Source: Campylobacterota bacterium (lineage in GTDB: Bacteria > Campylobacterota > Campylobacteria > Campylobacterales > Sulfurovaceae). Taken from it: a stretch of 8,663 bases of DNA. The notes under the pieces were generated by a model. It was given only the letters and a program-made list of their open reading frames with translations, ran no database searches and was not told the DNA's origin. The stretch covers positions 1-8,663 of the forward strand of contig QMKT01000078.1 of the NCBI GenBank assembly GCA_003646505.1. The letters are read 5' to 3'. Shown here one piece after another: positions 1,558 through 7,309 of this stretch (position 1 is the first letter of the stretch; each line of letters starts with the position of its first letter). Both the position numbers and the translations under genes were made by a program.

Positions 1558-1908
1558 TTATATCATTGTTTTGATGTCATGTTCAAATTTGTGTAACTCT
1601 TTTGTATCAAGACCTGCTACGTGACTTAATGGCAGTGTAAAAGCCAAACCGGGTGTTTGTGGATTATCAAGATCAAATTTTTTACGAAGTATACGCATCA
1701 CTTGCAGTGAGAGTTTTCTTGGCATTACAAAGAGTAAAACAGAGACATTTTCTTCAAGTGTGAGACCAAAGAAAACCTTTTTCTCTTCAAGTCCGATACT
1801 CTTTCCCTGTAAGATGGTCACCGATCCTGCACCTGCCTCTTTGGCAGCTTCTATAGCAGCTTCTTCATCTTTATCTTGAATGATTGTGATAAGTGCTGTA
1901 AACTTCAT
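1558..1908 (-). CDS. P-II-like signalling protein (116 aa)
   Basis: Small protein of the GlnB/GlnK-like fold. P-II proteins are trimers that bind ATP/ADP and small effectors and control transporters by inserting the T-loop. The N-terminal strand-helix-strand ([20 protein letters not shown], then a helix ending [12 protein letters not shown]) and the second half ([22 protein letters not shown]) fit the P-II double ferredoxin-like fold. A B-loop-like segment follows (NPQTPGLAF, 82-90). The T-loop region (about 36-54, [15 protein letters not shown]) seems shorter than in GlnB and has no tyrosine, so it cannot be uridylylated as GlnB Tyr51 is. Its ATG overlaps the DUF1538 stop as ATGA, with a strong AAGGAG site at 1916-1921 inside the end of that gene, which indicates translational coupling. 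By analogy with GlnK-AmtB and SbtB-SbtA it probably regulates the adjacent transporter; this is inference. Confidence 0.88.
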
Positions 1909-3440
1909 GATAGTTCTCCTTTTTGTGTAGTTTCTTCTACAGTGTTCTTCTTTTTATAATATTCTGCATGTATCCCGTATCCCATGACAGTAAGCATAGG
2001 GAAGAGTGATGCAAAGGCAATAAGTCCAAACCCGTCAATAAGAGGGTTTCTCCCTTCTATATTCTCTGCCAGACCCAAGCCTAAAGCTGCTACAAGCGGT
2101 ACGGTAACAGTAGAGGTGGTTACCCCTCCGCTATCATAAGCTATCGGTATGATATATTTAGGTGCAAAATAGGTAAAAATAATGACTAAAATATACCCTG
2201 CAACAATATAGTAGTGTATAGGATCTCCCGCAACTATACGGTAAGAACCAAGAGCTATACCTATGGCAACACCAAATGCAACAACCATTCTAAGTATATT
2301 TTGCCGTATCTTTCCTTGACTTATCTCTTCTGCTTTAATAGCAATGGCCAAAAGTGCCGGTTCTGCCATAGTTGTTGAAAAACCTATGAGAAAAGCAAAA
2401 AGATAAATAAGTAAGTTATTGCCCATGTCTGTAAGTTGAAAAGCGATGGTCTCGCCAATAGGAAAAAGTCCCATTTCAAGACCTACTATAAATGCATAAA
2501 GTCCAAGTATCACCAATATGATCCCTACCAGGATCTTATGTAAATGTGCTACAGATTTACGGATGACCAAATATTGAAAAAAGAAGATCACTGCGAGTAT
2601 GGGTATCACATCCATGATCGTATTGACCAGTTCCCAGAAGATGTTCATCCAGTCAAAGTGATATACTGCTGCTTTTCCCTTCTCTACAACTTTGGTCGCA
2701 ATCTCTACAGTTTTTGTAGCTGTTGTTGATGTGGAGTAGACCAAAATACCGTATGCCTGTACAAATATCATAGGCATAAGTGAGGCAAATGCTATGAGAC
2801 CAAAGCCATCAATGGCAGGGTTACGACCTTTGATACTTGACGCAAGCCCTATACCCAAAGCAGCAACCAGAGGTACTGTTACTGTTGAGGTGGTGACACC
2901 ACCAGAGTCATAGGCCAAGCCTATGATCTCTTTTGGTGCAAAGAAGGTGATCACTACTACGAGGATATATCCGCTGATGATGTAGTACTGTATAGGGTGA
3001 CCAACAAGGATACGATAAGTACCAAGGGCTATTGCAAAACCAACTGAAAAAGCAACGGTCATACGTAGAAAAAAAGCATCTACCCGGCCATCACTTATTA
3101 AGGCGGCTTTGTCAGCTATTGCTATAAGTGCCGGCTCAGCGACAGTTGTAGAAAAACCAATGGTAAATGCAAAAGCCAGTAACCAGAAGAGCGAACCTTT
3201 TCTGGCAAAGTCAACAGCCAGTCCTTCCCCTATGGGAAAGATACCAAGTTCTAGTCCACGAATGAAAAGTGCAAGTCCGATGGCCACGATGGTTAAACCT
3301 ATGACGATGGAGCTTACATTTTCAGGTATAGCTTGGATGATAACACCTTGAAACAACGCTACAACAATGATAATGGGAAGCAGGTCTTTAAAAGAGTTTT
3401 TTAAATCTCCTGCGAATATCTTTAAACTTTCTTTTATCAT
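1905..3440 (-). CDS. DUF1538 (UmpAB-type) membrane transporter, two tandem repeats
   Basis: Polytopic inner-membrane protein of 511 aa made of two DUF1538 units, about 14-235 and 268-492, joined by a polar linker (236-267). Signature blocks repeat at a constant 258-residue offset: [11 protein letters not shown] (62) and [11 protein letters not shown] (320); [19 protein letters not shown] (94) and [19 protein letters not shown] (352); [20 protein letters not shown] (177 and 435, identical); [20 protein letters not shown] (205) and its counterpart (463). Conserved acidic residues inside otherwise hydrophobic motifs (E64, E72, E102, D178; E322, E330, E360, D436) could bind cations or protons. 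From memory, the two-gene DUF1538 pair UmpAB of Halomonas was reported as a Na+(Li+,K+)/H+ antiporter; here both units are in one chain. The substrate in this organism is not shown by the sequence. The ATG at 3440 has no Shine-Dalgarno site, and an in-frame TAG 37-39 nt upstream, with no other usable start between, leaves it as the only good choice. P-II and CBS genes follow in the same operon. Confidence 0.92.
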
Positions 3441-3476: not shown

Positions 3477-4088
3477 CTATAGAAGTTCAATTTTTCCTCT
3501 ATGTAAGCTTACTGTACCTTTTTGTTCCAGTGCTTTGAGTAAACGACTGACAACAACGCGAGAACTCCCTAATTTGATCGCTAACGCTTCATGTGTTATC
3601 TCTATCATCTTTTGTGGTTGCTTATGGAGCCATTCAACAATACGTGTATCTAAACGTTTAAATTTAATGTCATTAATGAGGTTTGTGAGTTCTTCAAAAC
3701 GAAGTTGATAGAGTGAAAAAAGATAGCTTTGGTAGACATCTGACATTCTGCTCAACATTTTGACACTCTCTACATCTATGAGGTAACCCTCAATATTTGT
3801 AAGTGTTTCAGCAGAAGCTACTGCATCTGTTTGTGAAAGTAATGAGGCTGTATTAACGATACACTGTTCTCCCGCTTTGAGTGTATAGAGTGTGATGTCT
3901 TCTATGCTGTCAGCCTGTGTATAGAGGCGTACTTCACCTTTAGTCAGCCATAAAATGTTGTCACAAATATCACCTTGGTAAAAGAGCAGGGTACCTTTTG
4001 GTATTTTGATAGGTTTGATGTGTGTGTCGAGAAATTGTAGGGCTTCTGGTTCTAGTTGTTTTAGAAAAGGGTAAGTGCTAAACTGCAT
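3477..4088 (-). CDS. Crp/Fnr-family transcription regulator (NssR-like candidate)
   Basis: DNA-binding regulator of 203 aa with the Crp/Fnr layout: an N-terminal cyclic-nucleotide-type beta-roll (about 15-110), a long dimerisation helix (about 112-140) and a C-terminal winged helix-turn-helix (about 145-200). The recognition helix reads SSRVVVSRLLKALE (175-188), with R177, S181 and R182 at positions that contact DNA in this family. It has only two cysteines (C42, C76), so it cannot carry an FNR-type 4Fe-4S cluster. In both respects (no cluster, nearby TAAC-N4-GTTA dyads) it resembles C. jejuni NssR, the nitrosative-stress regulator; orthology is not proven. A GGAG site precedes the ATG. It lies 45 bp downstream of a DUF2892 gene whose promoter carries such a dyad, so positive autoregulation by read-through is plausible. 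It is the obvious candidate regulator for the three operators in this window. Confidence 0.92.
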   Translation of the reverse strand: MQFSTYPFLKQLEPEALQFLDTHIKPIKIPKGTLLFYQGDICDNILWLTKGEVRLYTQADSIEDITLYTLKAGEQCIVNTASLLSQTDAVASAETLTNIEGYLIDVESVKMLSRMSDVYQSYLFSLYQLRFEELTNLINDIKFKRLDTRIVEWLHKQPQKMIEITHEALAIKLGSSRVVVSRLLKALEQKGTVSLHRGKIELL

Positions 4089-4133: not shown

Positions 4134-4331
4134 TTAGTCGTTCTTAGTTTTACATCCTGTGTTAATACCAAGTAAAGCATATGGTGGACACCATCCTATA
4201 ATAGCTGTAAATAAAACTATACCACCAACTACATCAGCAATGATGTTTCCATTCATTACACCCCAAGCAATTACTGCTGCGCCTACTATACCTCTAATTA
4301 CTCTGTCGATCTTTCCTACGTTACATGTCAT
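4134..4331 (-). CDS. DUF2892 (YgaP-like TM) small membrane protein, copy 1
   Basis: 65-aa inner-membrane protein of the DUF2892/YgaP transmembrane family. Two hydrophobic helices (about 11-27 and 31-47) are followed by the family motif GWCPPYALLGINTGCK. Three cysteines (C3, C48, C60) match those of the paralogue at 5798-5986. In E. coli YgaP this domain anchors a rhodanese; here it stands alone, so a sulfur or redox role is only suggested by the family. A strong AAAAGGAAA ribosome site precedes the ATG. The promoter has a -10 CATAAT and a Crp/Fnr dyad centred at -41.5. The Crp/Fnr gene follows after 45 bp on the same strand. Promoter, gene and the 20-odd bp after the stop are all similar to those of copy 2, so the whole unit was duplicated. 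Confidence 0.9.
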   Translation of the reverse strand: MTCNVGKIDRVIRGIVGAAVIAWGVMNGNIIADVVGGIVLFTAIIGWCPPYALLGINTGCKTKND

Positions 4332-4353
4332 AATGTTTCCTTTTTTTTTAATG

Positions 4354-4403
4354 TAGATGTATTATGACAGTTTAAAAATGATTTGTTTGTAACATGAGTT
4401 ACA
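4354..4403 (-). promoter_or_regulatory. Class II Crp/Fnr-type promoter of DUF2892 copy 1
   Basis: The perfect dyad TGTAAC-ATGA-GTTACA occupies 4388-4403, six bp past the end of the cytochrome gene. A -10 CATAAT lies at 4361-4366, predicting +1 at 4354. The dyad centre (4395.5) is then at -41.5, where Crp/Fnr proteins activate by replacing the -35. The leader is 23 nt. The TAAC-N4-GTTA core matches the C. jejuni NssR consensus. Confidence 0.72.
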
Positions 4404-4409
4404 TAAAGA

Positions 4410-5540
4410 TCAAAATTTAAATTTTTGTGTTTTTAAGATCCTGAATCTACTAACCTCTTCATTTTTCTCAAGTCCAAGTGCTTTGGCACCTTTTTTTGTT
4501 AAAAGTTGTACACCAAGTGTCAATGTAAGTATGTCCCCTTTTTGCAAAGTTTCAGTGAAGTCAATTTTTTTATGTGCATAGATTAAAGTATCTTTCAGTG
4601 TAGCTGTTGCATTCCAAGGCATGGTTTCTTTACCATCTTTTGCCAAAATACGTGTAAAGACAAAAGGTTTAAGTGTAATAGTCTTACCTTTGCGTTCTAT
4701 GCTTACTTTGAGTTTCCCTTCACGCAGTGCTTGTCCAAAGAGTGCATGGTTTGATTTGTTTATAACATCAATGTGGAAACCTGAGTTGTCTTGAGTTACA
4801 TTGAAATCTATATATTTCCCCATCTCTTTATTCATATGGTAAATACCGGCAATACCATGAAAAGCATGTGTTTTTGTCTTATTAATGGTTACTTTTGAGC
4901 CAAGTACTTGAGGCATATGGCAGGTAACACAAGTATTTTTGTCATCTTTATCTATAAGTGCATCAAGCATAACAATATCAAAATCATGTTCATTGTTAGT
5001 GTGTGAGTGACATCCCATACAGACATTCCCATTGTAGTAATTTTCATTGCTATAGTCTATTTTATGGTAGGGTGAGTTCTTTGATTTTTTCACCAATCCG
5101 AACCAGGAGGATTCTATTTCAAACTTAGCGGTATTTAAATTTTTTTTAGATGTCTCAGCACTAAAGAACTCTTTGTTTTTGTCTGTTATTATATTGGTAT
5201 TTGACATTTTTCCGGAATCTACATTTTTAATGGTATGACAATAAACACAAGATATAGGTTCATCTTTTTGAATGTCATTGTCTTCTAAAATACCTGTTTG
5301 CATCAGTTTCTTGTCAGAAGGCGAGTGACACTTGGCACAGGTGTAGCTTTTATCATCTTTAGGATGTTTTTCCCAGTAGGCTTTGTGTATAGAGTTGTTG
5401 ACCACAGAAGCTTTTCTATGTGAAGATTTATAATACTCGTTGTAGATAATAGGATGACACTGTTGACATATTTTACTCTCATTCGCAATGGCAAAAAGAG
5501 AGAGTGAAAGTATAGTAAATAAAATAAATATTTGTTTCAT
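4410..5540 (-). CDS. Periplasmic pentahaem cytochrome c (c554-like)
   Basis: 376-aa exported multihaem cytochrome. Residues 1-20 form a Sec signal peptide. Five CXXCH haem-attachment motifs follow: CQQCH (25), CAKCH (68), CVYCH (98), CMGCH (174) and CVTCH (204, followed by MP). The spacing and the first block (CQQCH-x-IIYNEYYKSSH) resemble the cytochrome c554-like family. Haem-free residues 215-376 look beta-rich and contain VINKSNHALFGQALREG, a variant of the N-x-GH-x-LPTG-like block found C-terminal to haems in many such proteins. It probably shuttles electrons or reduces a small periplasmic substrate; nitric oxide, hydroxylamine or peroxide are candidates, and the NssR-like operator makes a reactive-nitrogen role attractive but unproven. 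The ribosome site is AAAGGGA. No membrane quinol oxidase is next to it, so its electron donor is unknown. It is monocistronic by context, with its own class II promoter. Confidence 0.9.
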   Translation of the reverse strand: MKQIFILFTILSLSLFAIANESKICQQCHPIIYNEYYKSSHRKASVVNNSIHKAYWEKHPKDDKSYTCAKCHSPSDKKLMQTGILEDNDIQKDEPISCVYCHTIKNVDSGKMSNTNIITDKNKEFFSAETSKKNLNTAKFEIESSWFGLVKKSKNSPYHKIDYSNENYYNGNVCMGCHSHTNNEHDFDIVMLDALIDKDDKNTCVTCHMPQVLGSKVTINKTKTHAFHGIAGIYHMNKEMGKYIDFNVTQDNSGFHIDVINKSNHALFGQALREGKLKVSIERKGKTITLKPFVFTRILAKDGKETMPWNATATLKDTLIYAHKKIDFTETLQKGDILTLTLGVQLLTKKGAKALGLEKNEEVSRFRILKTQKFKF

Positions 5541-5561
5541 TTGTTTCCCTTTGAAACTTGA

Positions 5562-5617
5562 TAGATATATTATAGATTAAATATGTTTATAGATATGTAA
5601 CAATGGTTGCATATCTA
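5562..5617 (-). promoter_or_regulatory. Class II Crp/Fnr-type promoter of pentahaem cytochrome
   Basis: A 28-bp dyad at 5590-5617 has 12-bp arms (TAGATATGTAAC and GTTGCATATCTA) around AATG with a single mismatch. A perfect -10 TATAAT lies at 5569-5574 on the minus strand, predicting +1 at 5562 and a 22-nt leader. The dyad centre (5603.5) is at -41.5, the same geometry as at both DUF2892 promoters, although the intervening sequence is unrelated. Confidence 0.75.
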
Positions 5618-5793
5618 CTCTATTGCTTCTGAGATGGCATTATGATTGTTATAGGTTACTTTTTAGGAAGATAAATTTTTTCTCTGTAGATCAAGCTGTT
5701 ATCAAAGCAGATTATGCAATGAAAACAGTTGATGGTAAAGATGATAATATCATCTTTGTAGGTATGGGTCATAGACTATATAGCACGAAATAA
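5593..5793 (+). pseudogene. Possible decayed coding remnant, GGDEF C-terminus-like
   Basis: A frame open from 5593 to the TAA at 5791 lacks a convincing start or ribosome site. Its second half reads like real protein (DQAVIKADYAMKTVDGKDDN, then IIFVG). The order ADYAM...GKDDNIIFV resembles the C-terminal end of GGDEF (diguanylate cyclase) domains, where KADxAMYxxKxxGKNxIxF is usual, with about two residues missing. The last residues (YSTK) derive from the 3' flank of the duplicated DUF2892 unit, so the remnant would be truncated at that junction. Short and possibly fortuitous. The rest of the gap 5541-5797 holds only the cytochrome promoter. Confidence 0.25.
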
Positions 5794-5797
5794 CTTT

Positions 5798-5986
5798 TTA
5801 GTCGTTTTTGCAACCAGTATTTATACCAAATAGTGCATAAGGTGGACACCAGCCAATAATAGCTGTTCCAAGAGGAACAATACCAATAGCACCAAGCCAG
5901 TTTTGCTCTACAACACCCCAAGCAAGAACTGCTACTCCTACAATACCTCTAATAACTCTTTCGTATTTGCCTATATTACATAACAT
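5798..5986 (-). CDS. DUF2892 (YgaP-like TM) small membrane protein, copy 2
   Basis: 62-aa paralogue of the DUF2892 protein at 4134-4331. The N-terminus (MLCNIGKYERVIRGIVG) and the C-terminal motif (GWCPPYALFGINTGCK) are nearly the same, with the same three cysteines (C3, C47, C59). The stretch between the two helices and the first half of helix 2 (about 26-40) differ most, with one residue fewer. Two membrane helices are expected. The ribosome site is AAAGGAA. It lies downstream of msrAB with an 84-bp gap that contains its own promoter and the best dyad in the window, so it is probably transcribed alone. Unlike copy 1 it is not followed by a regulator gene. Function unknown; the conserved cysteines suggest thiol or metal chemistry. 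Confidence 0.9.
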   Translation of the reverse strand: MLCNIGKYERVIRGIVGVAVLAWGVVEQNWLGAIGIVPLGTAIIGWCPPYALFGINTGCKND

Positions 5987-6007
5987 AATTGATTCCTTTT
6001 TTTAATG

Positions 6008-6061
6008 TAGAAGTATTATGGCAGAATAGAAAAACTTTGTATGTAACCAATGTTACATACA
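6008..6061 (-). promoter_or_regulatory. Class II Crp/Fnr-type promoter of DUF2892 copy 2
   Basis: A perfect dyad with 10-bp arms (TGTATGTAAC and GTTACATACA) around CAAT spans 6038-6061. A -10 CATAAT lies at 6015-6020 on the minus strand, predicting +1 at 6008 and a 22-nt leader. The dyad centre (6049.5) is at -41.5. This is the strongest of the three operators and sits between the msrAB stop and the gene it should control. Confidence 0.77.
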
Positions 6062-6070
6062 GAAGATACT

Positions 6071-7309
6071 TTAATCTTTGGTATTTTTAAATTTTGCTCT
6101 TGGTACAAATTCAAGTACAGTTGCATTAATACAGAAACGTTGTTTACCACCAGGTCCATCGTTAAAGACATGCCCCAGATGCGCTCCAGACTTTTTAGCA
6201 AGTATTTCTACCCGTCTCATGCCATATTTGTTATCTGCTTTTTGAACAGTAGAGCCTTTTACAGCTTTAAAAAAGCTCAACCACCCAGTCCCAGAATTAA
6301 ATCTTTCACGTGCGTCAAAGAGTATATCTCCAGAGATCTTGTCTATAAATACCCCATCGCCTGTGTTTTTAAACTTTTTGTATTGTTTACAAAACCTGCC
6401 ATCTGTTTTTTGTTTGAAAGCAACATCGTAGCCCTCACTCTCTTCACCTAGTTTAAATGCACCTACAGCTTTATAGAATGTTTTTTCATCCATGTATCCT
6501 GTGTAGGCATACACTTCTTTTCCATCTTCTATGAATAATATAGTAGGTGTTCCTTCTATCTTTGAATTAAGTTTAAAGCCTTTGAGTGCTTCTTGTTTAA
6601 CAGTTCTAAGTGTGATGCTGCCATTATAATGGTCTGTGACATTTTTCTTGAACTTCTCACAAAACCTACAGTGCTCTGCATCGATGACTACGATCTCTTT
6701 GCCTCCTAGTGGAGAGATAGTCTCCGTTTTGAACTTTGCGTTTCCAAATTTTACACCTGTAGAATGGTTAGGGCAGTAGCCTCGAGGATTTTTTTCTAAG
6801 TAGTTTTGATGATACGCTTCTGTGGAGTAGAATTTTTTTAAAGGTTTTATCTCCGTAGTGATGGGCCCATACCCTGCTTTTGTTAAAAGTTTTTGATAAC
6901 TCTTTTTTGTAACCATAGCAATTTTCTTTTGTGTATCTGTTGTATAGTACAGAGCAGATCTATAGTTGTTTCCTTTGTCATTACCTTGTCTGTCACCTTG
7001 TGTAGGGTTATGAAGTTCCCAAAATGATCTGATGAGTTTTTCTGTAGAGATCTTACTGTCATCATAGACCACTTCAACCACTTCGGTATGGTTGATGATA
7101 TTTTTACTGCCGTGTCGATACTTAAGCACAGTTTTATAAGTAGGGTTGTCATAATTCCCTCCTGCATAACCAGATTTTGCACTTTTGACACCATCTAGGT
7201 TTTCAAAGTATTTCTCCACACCCCAAAAGCATCCTGCACCAAAGACAATTGTTTGTGTCTTTGCAAAGAGTGATAAGCTGAGAGCCAAAAATAACATGAG
7301 TGTTCTCAT
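6071..7309 (-). CDS. msrAB: Exported MsrA-thioredoxin-MsrB methionine sulfoxide reductase
   Basis: 412-aa envelope repair enzyme that reduces S- and R-methionine sulfoxide in oxidised periplasmic proteins. Residues 1-16 form a signal peptide (MRTLMLFLALSLSLFA). The MsrA domain (about 19-185) has the catalytic GAGCFWG (C27), YHQNYL (166) and a candidate resolving cysteine in GYCPNH (C179). Residues about 203-290 form a thioredoxin-like domain with CRFC (C214, C217) and a cis-proline-like GTPTILFI (253). The MsrB domain (about 295-404) has GTGWLSF (340; the usual form is GTGWPSF), HLGHVFNDGPG (377) and the catalytic RFCIN (C393). It lacks the two CxxC zinc pairs of zinc-type MsrB; C307 may resolve. 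The central thioredoxin would pass electrons to both active sites. Known PilB-type fusions place thioredoxin first. An AAAAGGA site precedes the ATG. It lies 80 bp after the peroxidase stop, possibly co-transcribed; a weak TATGCT at 7344-7349 could be its own -10. No Crp/Fnr dyad was seen. Confidence 0.95.
   Translation of the reverse strand: MRTLMLFLALSLSLFAKTQTIVFGAGCFWGVEKYFENLDGVKSAKSGYAGGNYDNPTYKTVLKYRHGSKNIINHTEVVEVVYDDSKISTEKLIRSFWELHNPTQGDRQGNDKGNNYRSALYYTTDTQKKIAMVTKKSYQKLLTKAGYGPITTEIKPLKKFYSTEAYHQNYLEKNPRGYCPNHSTGVKFGNAKFKTETISPLGGKEIVVIDAEHCRFCEKFKKNVTDHYNGSITLRTVKQEALKGFKLNSKIEGTPTILFIEDGKEVYAYTGYMDEKTFYKAVGAFKLGEESEGYDVAFKQKTDGRFCKQYKKFKNTGDGVFIDKISGDILFDARERFNSGTGWLSFFKAVKGSTVQKADNKYGMRRVEILAKKSGAHLGHVFNDGPGGKQRFCINATVLEFVPRAKFKNTKD

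What the first reader, a model, noticed from the sequence alone, without database searches (positions are those of the whole stretch)
4354..6061. Three-promoter Crp/Fnr regulon with identical -41.5 geometry
Both DUF2892 genes and the pentahaem cytochrome have a dyad with core TGTAAC-N4-GTTACA (one base changed in the cytochrome site), centred exactly 41.5 bp upstream of the +1 predicted from a visible -10, and 63.5, 63.5 and 64.5 bp from the start codon. The cytochrome promoter is otherwise unrelated to the DUF2892 promoters, so the shared geometry is functional rather than copied. The core TAAC-N4-GTTA is that of the C. jejuni NssR site (established knowledge). A Crp/Fnr protein without FNR cysteines is encoded between these genes. 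I infer a local nitrosative- or redox-stress regulon whose outputs, DUF2892 and a c554-like cytochrome, differ from the globins NssR controls in Campylobacter.
Basis: partly seen in the sequence, partly recalled or inferred. Interest (0 to 1): 0.75.

Follow-up and report, generated by a model that had tools for sequence, protein, structure and literature searches.

The report
Two-cysteine Crp switch for DUF2892 genes
In a Sulfurovum-type bacterium three genes carry the same 16-base control site (one base changed in one of them) at the same distance from their start signals; the site is likely bound by the Crp-type regulator encoded among them, and because the same regulator, site and small membrane-protein gene recur together in many sulfur-cycling relatives, the switch would more likely sense reactive sulfur than nitric oxide.

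Summary
TGTAAC-N4-GTTACA lies 21 nt before a -10 hexamer at both DUF2892 genes (exact) and the pentahaem cytochrome (one mismatch). This composite with at most one mismatch occurs three times in the assembly, all here. It belongs to a conserved module: a Crp-family protein (R-V recognition helix, cysteines C42/C76), DUF2892 (YgaP-like membrane protein) and this operator recur in Sulfurovum, Sulfurimonas, Sulfuricurvum, Sulfurospirillum and Arcobacter. Of 47 testable DUF2892 promoters beside such regulators, 28 dyads are exact, 12 have one mismatch, 5 two, 2 more. In the genus, all 14 genomes whose DUF2892 gene keeps the dyad encode the regulator family; 12 of 13 others do not.

Kinship with NssR is not supported: its homologues NssA/NssB have a Dnr-type helix, Nss sites are TTGA-N6-TCAA, and NssR has one cysteine. 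HcpR2 shares the operator. In an Arcobacteraceae relative the two exact dyads stand before DUF2892-DUF302-rhodanese and DsrE-redoxin-crp genes, so I predict a reactive-sulfur switch. Binding, activation and signal are untested; two relatives keep cytochrome dyads without this regulator.

The parts
3477..4088 (-). CrpX: 203-aa Crp/Fnr-superfamily regulator (cNMP-like domain + HTH_Crp_2), cysteines C42 and C76, recognition helix SSRVVVSR
   Evidence: Pfam; cysteine conservation; helix
4134..4331 (-). DUF2892a (PF11127 YgaP-like_TM), 65 aa, 45 bp upstream of CrpX on the same strand, likely one operon
   Evidence: pairing conserved
4361..4366 (-). -10 hexamer CATAAT of DUF2892a, 21 nt after the dyad
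4388..4403 (.). exact dyad TGTAAC-N4-GTTACA, likely operator of DUF2892a-crpX
4410..5540 (-). pentahaem c-type cytochrome (five CxxCH; Cytochrome_C554 and C7 matches), 376 aa
5569..5574 (-). -10 hexamer TATAAT of the cytochrome gene, 21 nt after the dyad
5596..5611 (.). dyad with one mismatch (TGCAAC-N4-GTTACA read on the - strand), likely operator of the cytochrome gene
   Evidence: exact dyads at the corresponding place in L100, L104, L105
5798..5986 (-). DUF2892b (PF11127), 62 aa, duplicate of DUF2892a including its promoter
6015..6020 (-). -10 hexamer CATAAT of DUF2892b, 21 nt after the dyad
6042..6057 (.). exact dyad TGTAAC-N4-GTTACA, likely operator of DUF2892b

Best explanation
The three dyads sit at one fixed distance from a -10 hexamer and are likely the operators of the Crp-family protein CrpX encoded at 3477-4088, which is predicted to activate its own DUF2892a-crpX operon, DUF2892b and the pentahaem cytochrome from -41.5 in response to reactive sulfur or another thiol-active stress sensed through cysteines C42 and C76. 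Shown by sequence: dyads, spacing, recurrence of CrpX + DUF2892 + dyad across Campylobacterota, absence of the dyad (at most 1 mismatch) from the DUF2892 promoters of the 12 genus members with DUF2892 but without this regulator family, and cysteine conservation. Inferred: that CrpX is the protein that binds (its R-V recognition helix fits a published residue-base correlation for GTAAC half-sites), class II activation rather than repression, and one operon with autoregulation. Predicted and least certain: the signal. It rests on YgaP-like DUF2892 as core target, on DsrE, redoxin, DUF302 and rhodanese genes behind the same site in an Arcobacteraceae relative, and on analogy with YgaV, whose two cysteines form a tetrasulfide that derepresses ygaVP.
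For: Composite dyad/-10 pattern with at most 1 mismatch only at these three promoters in the assembly. 61 loci of the family from named genomes: 47 with DUF2892 nearby; promoters 28 exact, 12 one mismatch, 5 two, 2 more; about 1.6 sites with at most 1 mismatch expected by chance in all 68 loci of the scan. 45 non-identical DUF2892 promoters with a dyad: a -10-like hexamer (at least 4 of 6) at 21 nt in 29 and at 22 nt in 16, the best one between 10 and 40 nt in 40 of 45, while centre-to-ATG runs from 60.5 to 82.5. Gene order varies (crp-dyad-DUF2892 or dyad-DUF2892-crp), and the dyad stays with the DUF2892 promoter. Genus: 27 of 78 genomes have DUF2892; 14 keep a dyad with at most 1 mismatch and all 14 encode the regulator family; of the other 13 one does; Fisher 7e-7, without correction for relatedness. 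Published correlation: R180 with G3 and E181 with A6 of the half-site; HcpR2 (R180/P181) GTAACnnnnGTTAC (PMC1274295, passages). C42 and C76 in 121 of 121 sequences (CrpX and the best 120 of 1,093 homologues) and both in 59 of 61 wider loci. G215: two exact dyads in the genome, before DUF2892-DUF302-rhodanese and DsrE-redoxin-crp, each with TATAAT at 21 nt. A DUF2892 gene of Azospira suillum was about 10-fold higher under H2S oxidation (PMC5358917, passage). YgaV C31-C98 tetrasulfide (PMC9774250, passages).
Against: No binding, expression or effector data. G067 and G084 keep exact cytochrome dyads but have no CrpX-family protein at E 1e-30; they encode another Crp-type protein with R-S in the helix (L266/L267), so the cytochrome site may belong to a different regulator there. 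Five of nine testable close cytochrome orthologues have no dyad. There is no genome-wide excess of exact dyads in the genus: 26 in 78 genomes against 25 for the reversed control. Nine of the 61 named loci have neither DUF2892 nor a dyad. The own genome holds a second two-cysteine protein with R-P in the helix (C96). Most DUF2892 promoters have GACA directly after the dyad, a -35-like element 17-18 nt from the -10, which fits a repressor at least as well as an activator. In three of the 14 genomes the regulator is only a 38-46% relative. C42 is Thr in three of 29 order loci. The distance between the two cysteines could not be measured (model coordinates not returned). In the Azospira study deletion of the DUF2892 gene left the H2S oxidation rate unchanged. 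P460 and MsrAB neighbours also fit nitrogen or oxygen stress.
Confidence: 0.55

Rival explanations
1. CrpX is a repressor: it covers the -35-like GACA of the DUF2892 promoters and lets go when its cysteines are modified, as YgaV does at ygaVP.
For: GACA directly after the dyad (G 36, A 44, C 42, A 41 of 45), 17-18 nt from the -10, and an extended -10 TGTCATAAT in many Sulfurovum promoters: promoters that look able to work unaided.
Against: The window's cytochrome promoter has no -35-like element yet keeps the same 21-nt spacing; -41.5 is the classic class II activator position for this superfamily (established knowledge).
Confidence: 0.3
2. An NssR/Nss-type regulator of nitrosative stress controls the three promoters.
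Against: NssA/NssB: Dnr-type helix, Nss sites TTGA-N6-TCAA; NssR single cysteine; CrpX differs in these; separate Dnr-like proteins exist in the genome.
Confidence: 0.14
3. The dyads are read by the second two-cysteine Crp protein of the same genome (contig C96, R-P helix), CrpX being a minor or redundant player.
For: R180/P181 is the HcpR2 helix type for GTAACnnnnGTTAC; both cysteines present.
Against: Its own upstream dyad is TGTAAT-N4-ATTACA, and genes close to CrpX (mostly with R-V helices) are the ones beside DUF2892 across the order.
Confidence: 0.1
4. HcpR-like haem/NO sensing: CrpX uses the HcpR2 operator and also binds haem to sense NO.
For: Same published operator; a haem cytochrome as target.
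Against: No chain named HcpR among the 41 solved-structure sequence matches; conserved cysteines rather than a known haem pocket; hcp was not sought genome-wide.
Confidence: 0.12

Closest known systems
HcpR2 (Crp/Fnr-family regulator of hcp; Rodionov et al. 2005, PMC1274295, passages)
   Same: operator GTAACnnnnGTTAC, Arg at position 180, no FNR-type cysteine motif
   Different: Pro instead of Val at 181; target hcp instead of DUF2892; haem/NO sensing described for P. gingivalis HcpR (PMC12750200, abstract start and passages); conserved cysteine pair here
YgaV-YgaP of E. coli (PMC9774250, passages)
   Same: two-cysteine regulator gene beside and controlling a YgaP-type membrane protein; operon under its own regulator
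   Different: YgaV is an ArsR-type (SqrR/BigR) repressor; CrpX has the Crp fold; DUF2892 here lacks a rhodanese domain
NssR / NssA-C of Campylobacterota
   Same: Crp/Fnr superfamily, same phylum, small regulon; possibly a TAAC-N4-GTTA core (recalled)
   Different: Dnr-type helix of NssA/NssB, TTGA-N6-TCAA site of the Wolinella proteins, single cysteine in NssR, globin and denitrification targets
NtcA
   Same: best NCBIfam match by profile; R-V type helix and GTA-N8-TAC site contained in the dyad (both recalled)
   Different: score 38.6 against a cut-off of 244.95
Eubacterium rectale Crp/Fnr protein, PDB 3dv8 (a 'putative transcriptional regulator')
   Same: closest solved structure by sequence (E 1e-19) and first in the fold search; cysteines aligned at both positions
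   Different: R-E helix; other phylum

Membership tests
Crp/Fnr superfamily | cNMP-binding-like domain plus Crp-type HTH | tested here: met
   PF00027 2e-10 and PF13545 8e-9, both over cut-off; fold matches CRP-type structures
FNR | N-terminal Fe-S cysteines | tested here: not met
   only cysteines are C42 and C76
NssR/Nss | Dnr-type recognition helix (described for NssA/NssB) | tested here: not met
   SSRVVVSR against the description in PMC11539149; the helix signature P-E itself is recalled
NssR/Nss | TTGA-N6-TCAA operator (Wolinella Nss consensus) | tested here: not met
   TGTAAC-N4-GTTACA at the promoters
NssR/Nss | operator of C. jejuni NssR itself | not tested
   in no passage read; a TAAC-N4-GTTA core (reader, my recall) would be shared
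NssR/Nss | single cysteine (NssR) | tested here: not met
   two cysteines in CrpX against PMC4601167
NssR/Nss | sequence kinship with C. jejuni NssR | not tested
   no NssR sequence was obtained
HcpR2 | operator GTAACnnnnGTTAC | tested here: met
HcpR2 | R180/P181 recognition helix | tested here: inconclusive
   R180 yes, V instead of P at 181
HcpR2 | hcp as target | tested here: inconclusive
   no hcp in the window; hcp not sought genome-wide; no further composite site with at most 1 mismatch in the 80% complete assembly
HcpR2 | haem-based NO sensing | not testable with these tools
   needs purified protein
NtcA | NCBIfam equivalog cut-off | tested here: not met
   38.6 of 244.95 bits
YgaV/SqrR/BigR | ArsR fold | tested here: not met
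   Crp domains
YgaV/SqrR/BigR (works like) | two conserved cysteines and a YgaP-type partner gene | tested here: met
YgaV/SqrR/BigR (works like) | cysteine (tetra)sulfide switch | not testable with these tools
   needs biochemistry; cysteine distance not obtainable

The most novel reading that the evidence does not exclude
CrpX founds a Crp-fold class of reactive-sulfur sensors: a two-cysteine switch that evolved independently of ArsR-type YgaV/SqrR/BigR yet controls the same YgaP-type membrane protein, is the standard sulfane-sulfur regulator of sulfur-cycling Campylobacterota, and in this Sulfurovum lineage has recruited a pentahaem cytochrome and a duplicated DUF2892 gene into its regulon.
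Probability: 0.35. Interest if true: 0.72.

Novelty: new variant of a known kind. Interest (0 to 1): 0.56.

Why it matters
DUF2892 is a widespread membrane protein whose function is not established (my knowledge), and sulfur-oxidising Campylobacterota have few characterised regulators. A one-locus regulator with a defined operator, fixed geometry and two candidate sensor cysteines makes both directly testable. If the signal is sulfane sulfur, a second protein fold has converged on the same job as YgaV/SqrR. Four papers in the full-text library used here hold the word DUF2892, and none listed describes this regulator-DUF2892 pair in the passages or abstract starts that I saw; other wordings, or journals outside the library, could.

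Tried and rejected
Genome-wide dyad counts as proof: rejected. With 1 mismatch the reversed control equals the dyad in the own genome (6 and 6) and exceeds it in many relatives; exact dyads number 26 against 25 for the control in 78 genus genomes. The signal is positional. The C11 dyads were rejected as targets (inside an open frame); the C82 site lies about 240 bp before the start of a glyA-like gene (name recalled) with a poor -10. In 33 genomes of the order that have the family, 18 exact dyads (control 10) divide into 9 before DUF2892, 1 before DsrE-redoxin-crp, 1 beside crp at a contig end (G119), and 7 elsewhere: G352, G328, G259 and two in G168 inside open frames, G335 and one of G200 between genes without a -10 at 21-22 nt; these 7 were not counted as targets. 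In the genus, exact dyads of G023, G079, G075 and G062 also lie in open frames, and G072 has one before an unassigned 152-aa open frame. Distant cytochrome homologues (about 41-47% identity): none of the 20 with loci has a dyad with fewer than 3 mismatches; 30 of 47 cytochrome matches had loci. A PDB fold search gave only the general CRP fold.
Full report
Setting. The window is contig C78 of a 1.46-Mb, 80% complete assembly. Same-genus loci are mostly named Sulfurovum, so the organism is inferred to be Sulfurovum-like. On the - strand lie a CBS protein, a PII-like protein (label recalled, no Pfam match), a UmpAB-type antiporter (DUF1538), CrpX, DUF2892a, a pentahaem cytochrome, DUF2892b, an MsrA-thioredoxin-MsrB fusion and a MauG/MbnH-like dihaem protein.

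Observation. The dyads and their spacing are as described. A composite search (dyad, 21 nt, YATAAT; up to 3 mismatches) of the own genome returned 8 matches, 5 for the reversed control; the three with 0 or 1 mismatch are the three promoters of the finding, and the next (2 mismatches) lies in an open frame on C11. The regulon is therefore local, within the limits of an 80% complete assembly. The two DUF2892 promoters are copies. The cytochrome site is not a clear copy. Ten close cytochrome orthologues (55% identity or more) had loci, nine of them with upstream sequence: four have the dyad (own, one mismatch; G089, G067, G084, exact) and five do not (G090, G085, G014, G079, G008); those five also lack the CrpX family at E 1e-30. 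In G089 the cytochrome gene with its dyad lies on the same contig as CrpX-DUF2892.

Conservation in the genus. CrpX-family proteins at E 1e-30 occur in 20 of 78 genomes, DUF2892 in 27 of 78. DUF2892 promoters keep a dyad with at most one mismatch in 14 of these 27 genomes, and all 14 have the regulator family (three of them, G025, G064, G080, only a 38-46% relative). The 13 others: G066 (two mismatches) has CrpX; G100 and G026 (two mismatches), G075, G070, G003 (three) and seven genomes with five or more mismatches do not. These genomes are related, so the Fisher value 7e-7 overstates the number of independent events. Exact dyads anywhere occur in 19 of 78 genomes: 11 of 15 with a close CrpX orthologue, 8 of 63 without; in two of the 11 (G062, G072) the dyad is not at DUF2892. 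In total there are 26 exact dyads against 25 for the reversed control: no genome-wide excess.

Conservation in the order. A profile search found the family in 45 of 298 genomes. Of the 29 new loci that came with it, 28 have DUF2892 close by and 25 a dyad with at most one mismatch, 24 of these together with DUF2892. In 33 of these genomes searched for the exact dyad there are 18, against 10 for the control; 9 stand before DUF2892 (and see Tried and rejected). A scan of named genomes gave 68 loci. 61 belong to the family (60 titled as Campylobacterota groups, among them Sulfurovum, Sulfurimonas, Sulfuricurvum, Sulfurospirillum and Arcobacter; one titled Proteobacteria). 47 hold DUF2892, and their promoters are 28 exact, 12 one mismatch, 5 two, 2 three; of the 14 without DUF2892, five have a dyad somewhere in the locus and nine have none, some of them cut by contig ends. 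The other 7 loci (distant proteins, mostly with E-type helices) have neither DUF2892 nor dyad.

Promoter anatomy. Of 56 non-identical DUF2892 promoters read, 45 have a dyad with at most two mismatches (22 exact, 17 one, 6 two). All 45 have a -10-like hexamer (at least 4 of 6) at 21 (29) or 22 nt (16), and in 40 of 45 it is the best between 10 and 40 nt; elsewhere the highest count is 18 of 45 (offset 32). The centre-to-ATG distance ranges from 60.5 to 82.5. Several of these genomes are close relatives. GACA follows the dyad in most, one-sided and 17-18 nt from the -10, hence a -35-like element rather than part of the palindrome. It is weak or absent in the window's own three promoters.

Which regulator. 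The recognition helix reads S-S-R-V-V-V-S-R. In the published analysis, position 180 (R) correlates with G3 and 181 (E) with A6 of the half-site, and the R180/P181 group HcpR2 uses GTAACnnnnGTTAC; I place R177-V178 of CrpX at 180-181 from the alignment with CRP-type proteins. R-V is present in 52 of 61 loci, R-E in 4, R-A in 2, unread in 3. Among the five Crp-type proteins over the PF13545 cut-off in the own genome, two have R and no E: CrpX and the C96 protein; the others read TPET (C20, C38) and APAT (C74). Adjacency, co-occurrence and helix together favour CrpX.

Signal. CrpX has two cysteines, C42 and C76, kept in 121 of 121 close sequences and 59 of 61 wider loci; three of 29 order loci have Thr at 42, so C76 is the more constant. 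DUF2892 is the YgaP membrane domain (PF11127). In an Arcobacteraceae genome (G215/L241; the same contig is named so, L337) the two exact dyads stand before DUF2892-DUF302-rhodanese and DsrE-redoxin-crp, each with TATAAT at 21 nt. DsrE-like genes also lie beside crp in L258 and L259, there without a dyad. A DUF2892 gene in Azospira was about 10-fold higher under H2S oxidation; its deletion gave a minor impairment in onset and no change in rate. YgaV is the functional parallel. Against this, P460 with a dyad in G084 and a DUF2892 gene in a TrxC operon affected in an nnrR mutant of Bradyrhizobium (PMC6710368, table passage) keep nitrogen stress in play. I rank reactive sulfur first, at modest confidence.

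Unexplained. G067 and G084 keep the cytochrome dyads without CrpX. Either another R-type protein (L266/L267, R-S) reads them or they are relics. The model of CrpX (mean pLDDT 83.7) gives the CRP fold, but no coordinates were available to measure the C42-C76 distance.

Papers: only passages, abstract starts or search listings were seen, none in full.

Noticed in passing
window 5668-5790 (+): Remnant matching the C-terminal tail of a porin-like gene (label from sequence, no Pfam match) that is about 412 aa long next to this locus in many relatives; it lies between the cytochrome gene and DUF2892b and suggests a rearrangement.
   Followed up: partly
window 5798-6057 and 4134-4403: DUF2892b with its promoter is a duplicate of DUF2892a (75% over 304 bp).
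   Followed up: yes
window 6071-7309 (-): MsrA-thioredoxin-MsrB fusion directly upstream of the DUF2892b promoter; the same junction is seen in G009 beside DUF2892-CrpX.
   Followed up: no
L157 6724-7318: Cytochrome P460 gene with an exact dyad 68.5 bp before its start, next to the dyad-bearing cytochrome gene, in a genome without CrpX.
   Followed up: partly
L240 3217-3828 (own genome, contig C96): Second two-cysteine Crp protein (R-P helix, 33% identical to CrpX) with its own upstream dyad TGTAAT-N4-ATTACA.
   Followed up: partly
L256 59-1156 and L262 6060-7157: YgaP-like membrane domain fused to an HD_5 domain (PF13487) within a few kb of a CrpX-type gene.
   Followed up: no
L092 5031-5642 (G021) and L095 2494-3020 (G081): crpX reading frame broken in two genus members although DUF2892 and the dyad (one mismatch in G081) are kept.
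   Followed up: no
L165 6540-6555 (G090): A one-mismatch dyad lies just behind the cytochrome gene, the place of the DUF2892a operator in the window, in a genome where neither DUF2892 nor CrpX was found: possibly a relic.
   Followed up: no
L311 and L313-L315: Sulfurimonas CrpX-type proteins with R-E helices; one of the sites (L311) has TGTGAC in one half, as an E181-type helix would prefer.
   Followed up: no
window 1558-3440 (-): A UmpAB-type antiporter gene with PII-like and CBS genes follows crpX; in three genus genomes without CrpX the DUF2892 gene lies directly before it.
   Followed up: no
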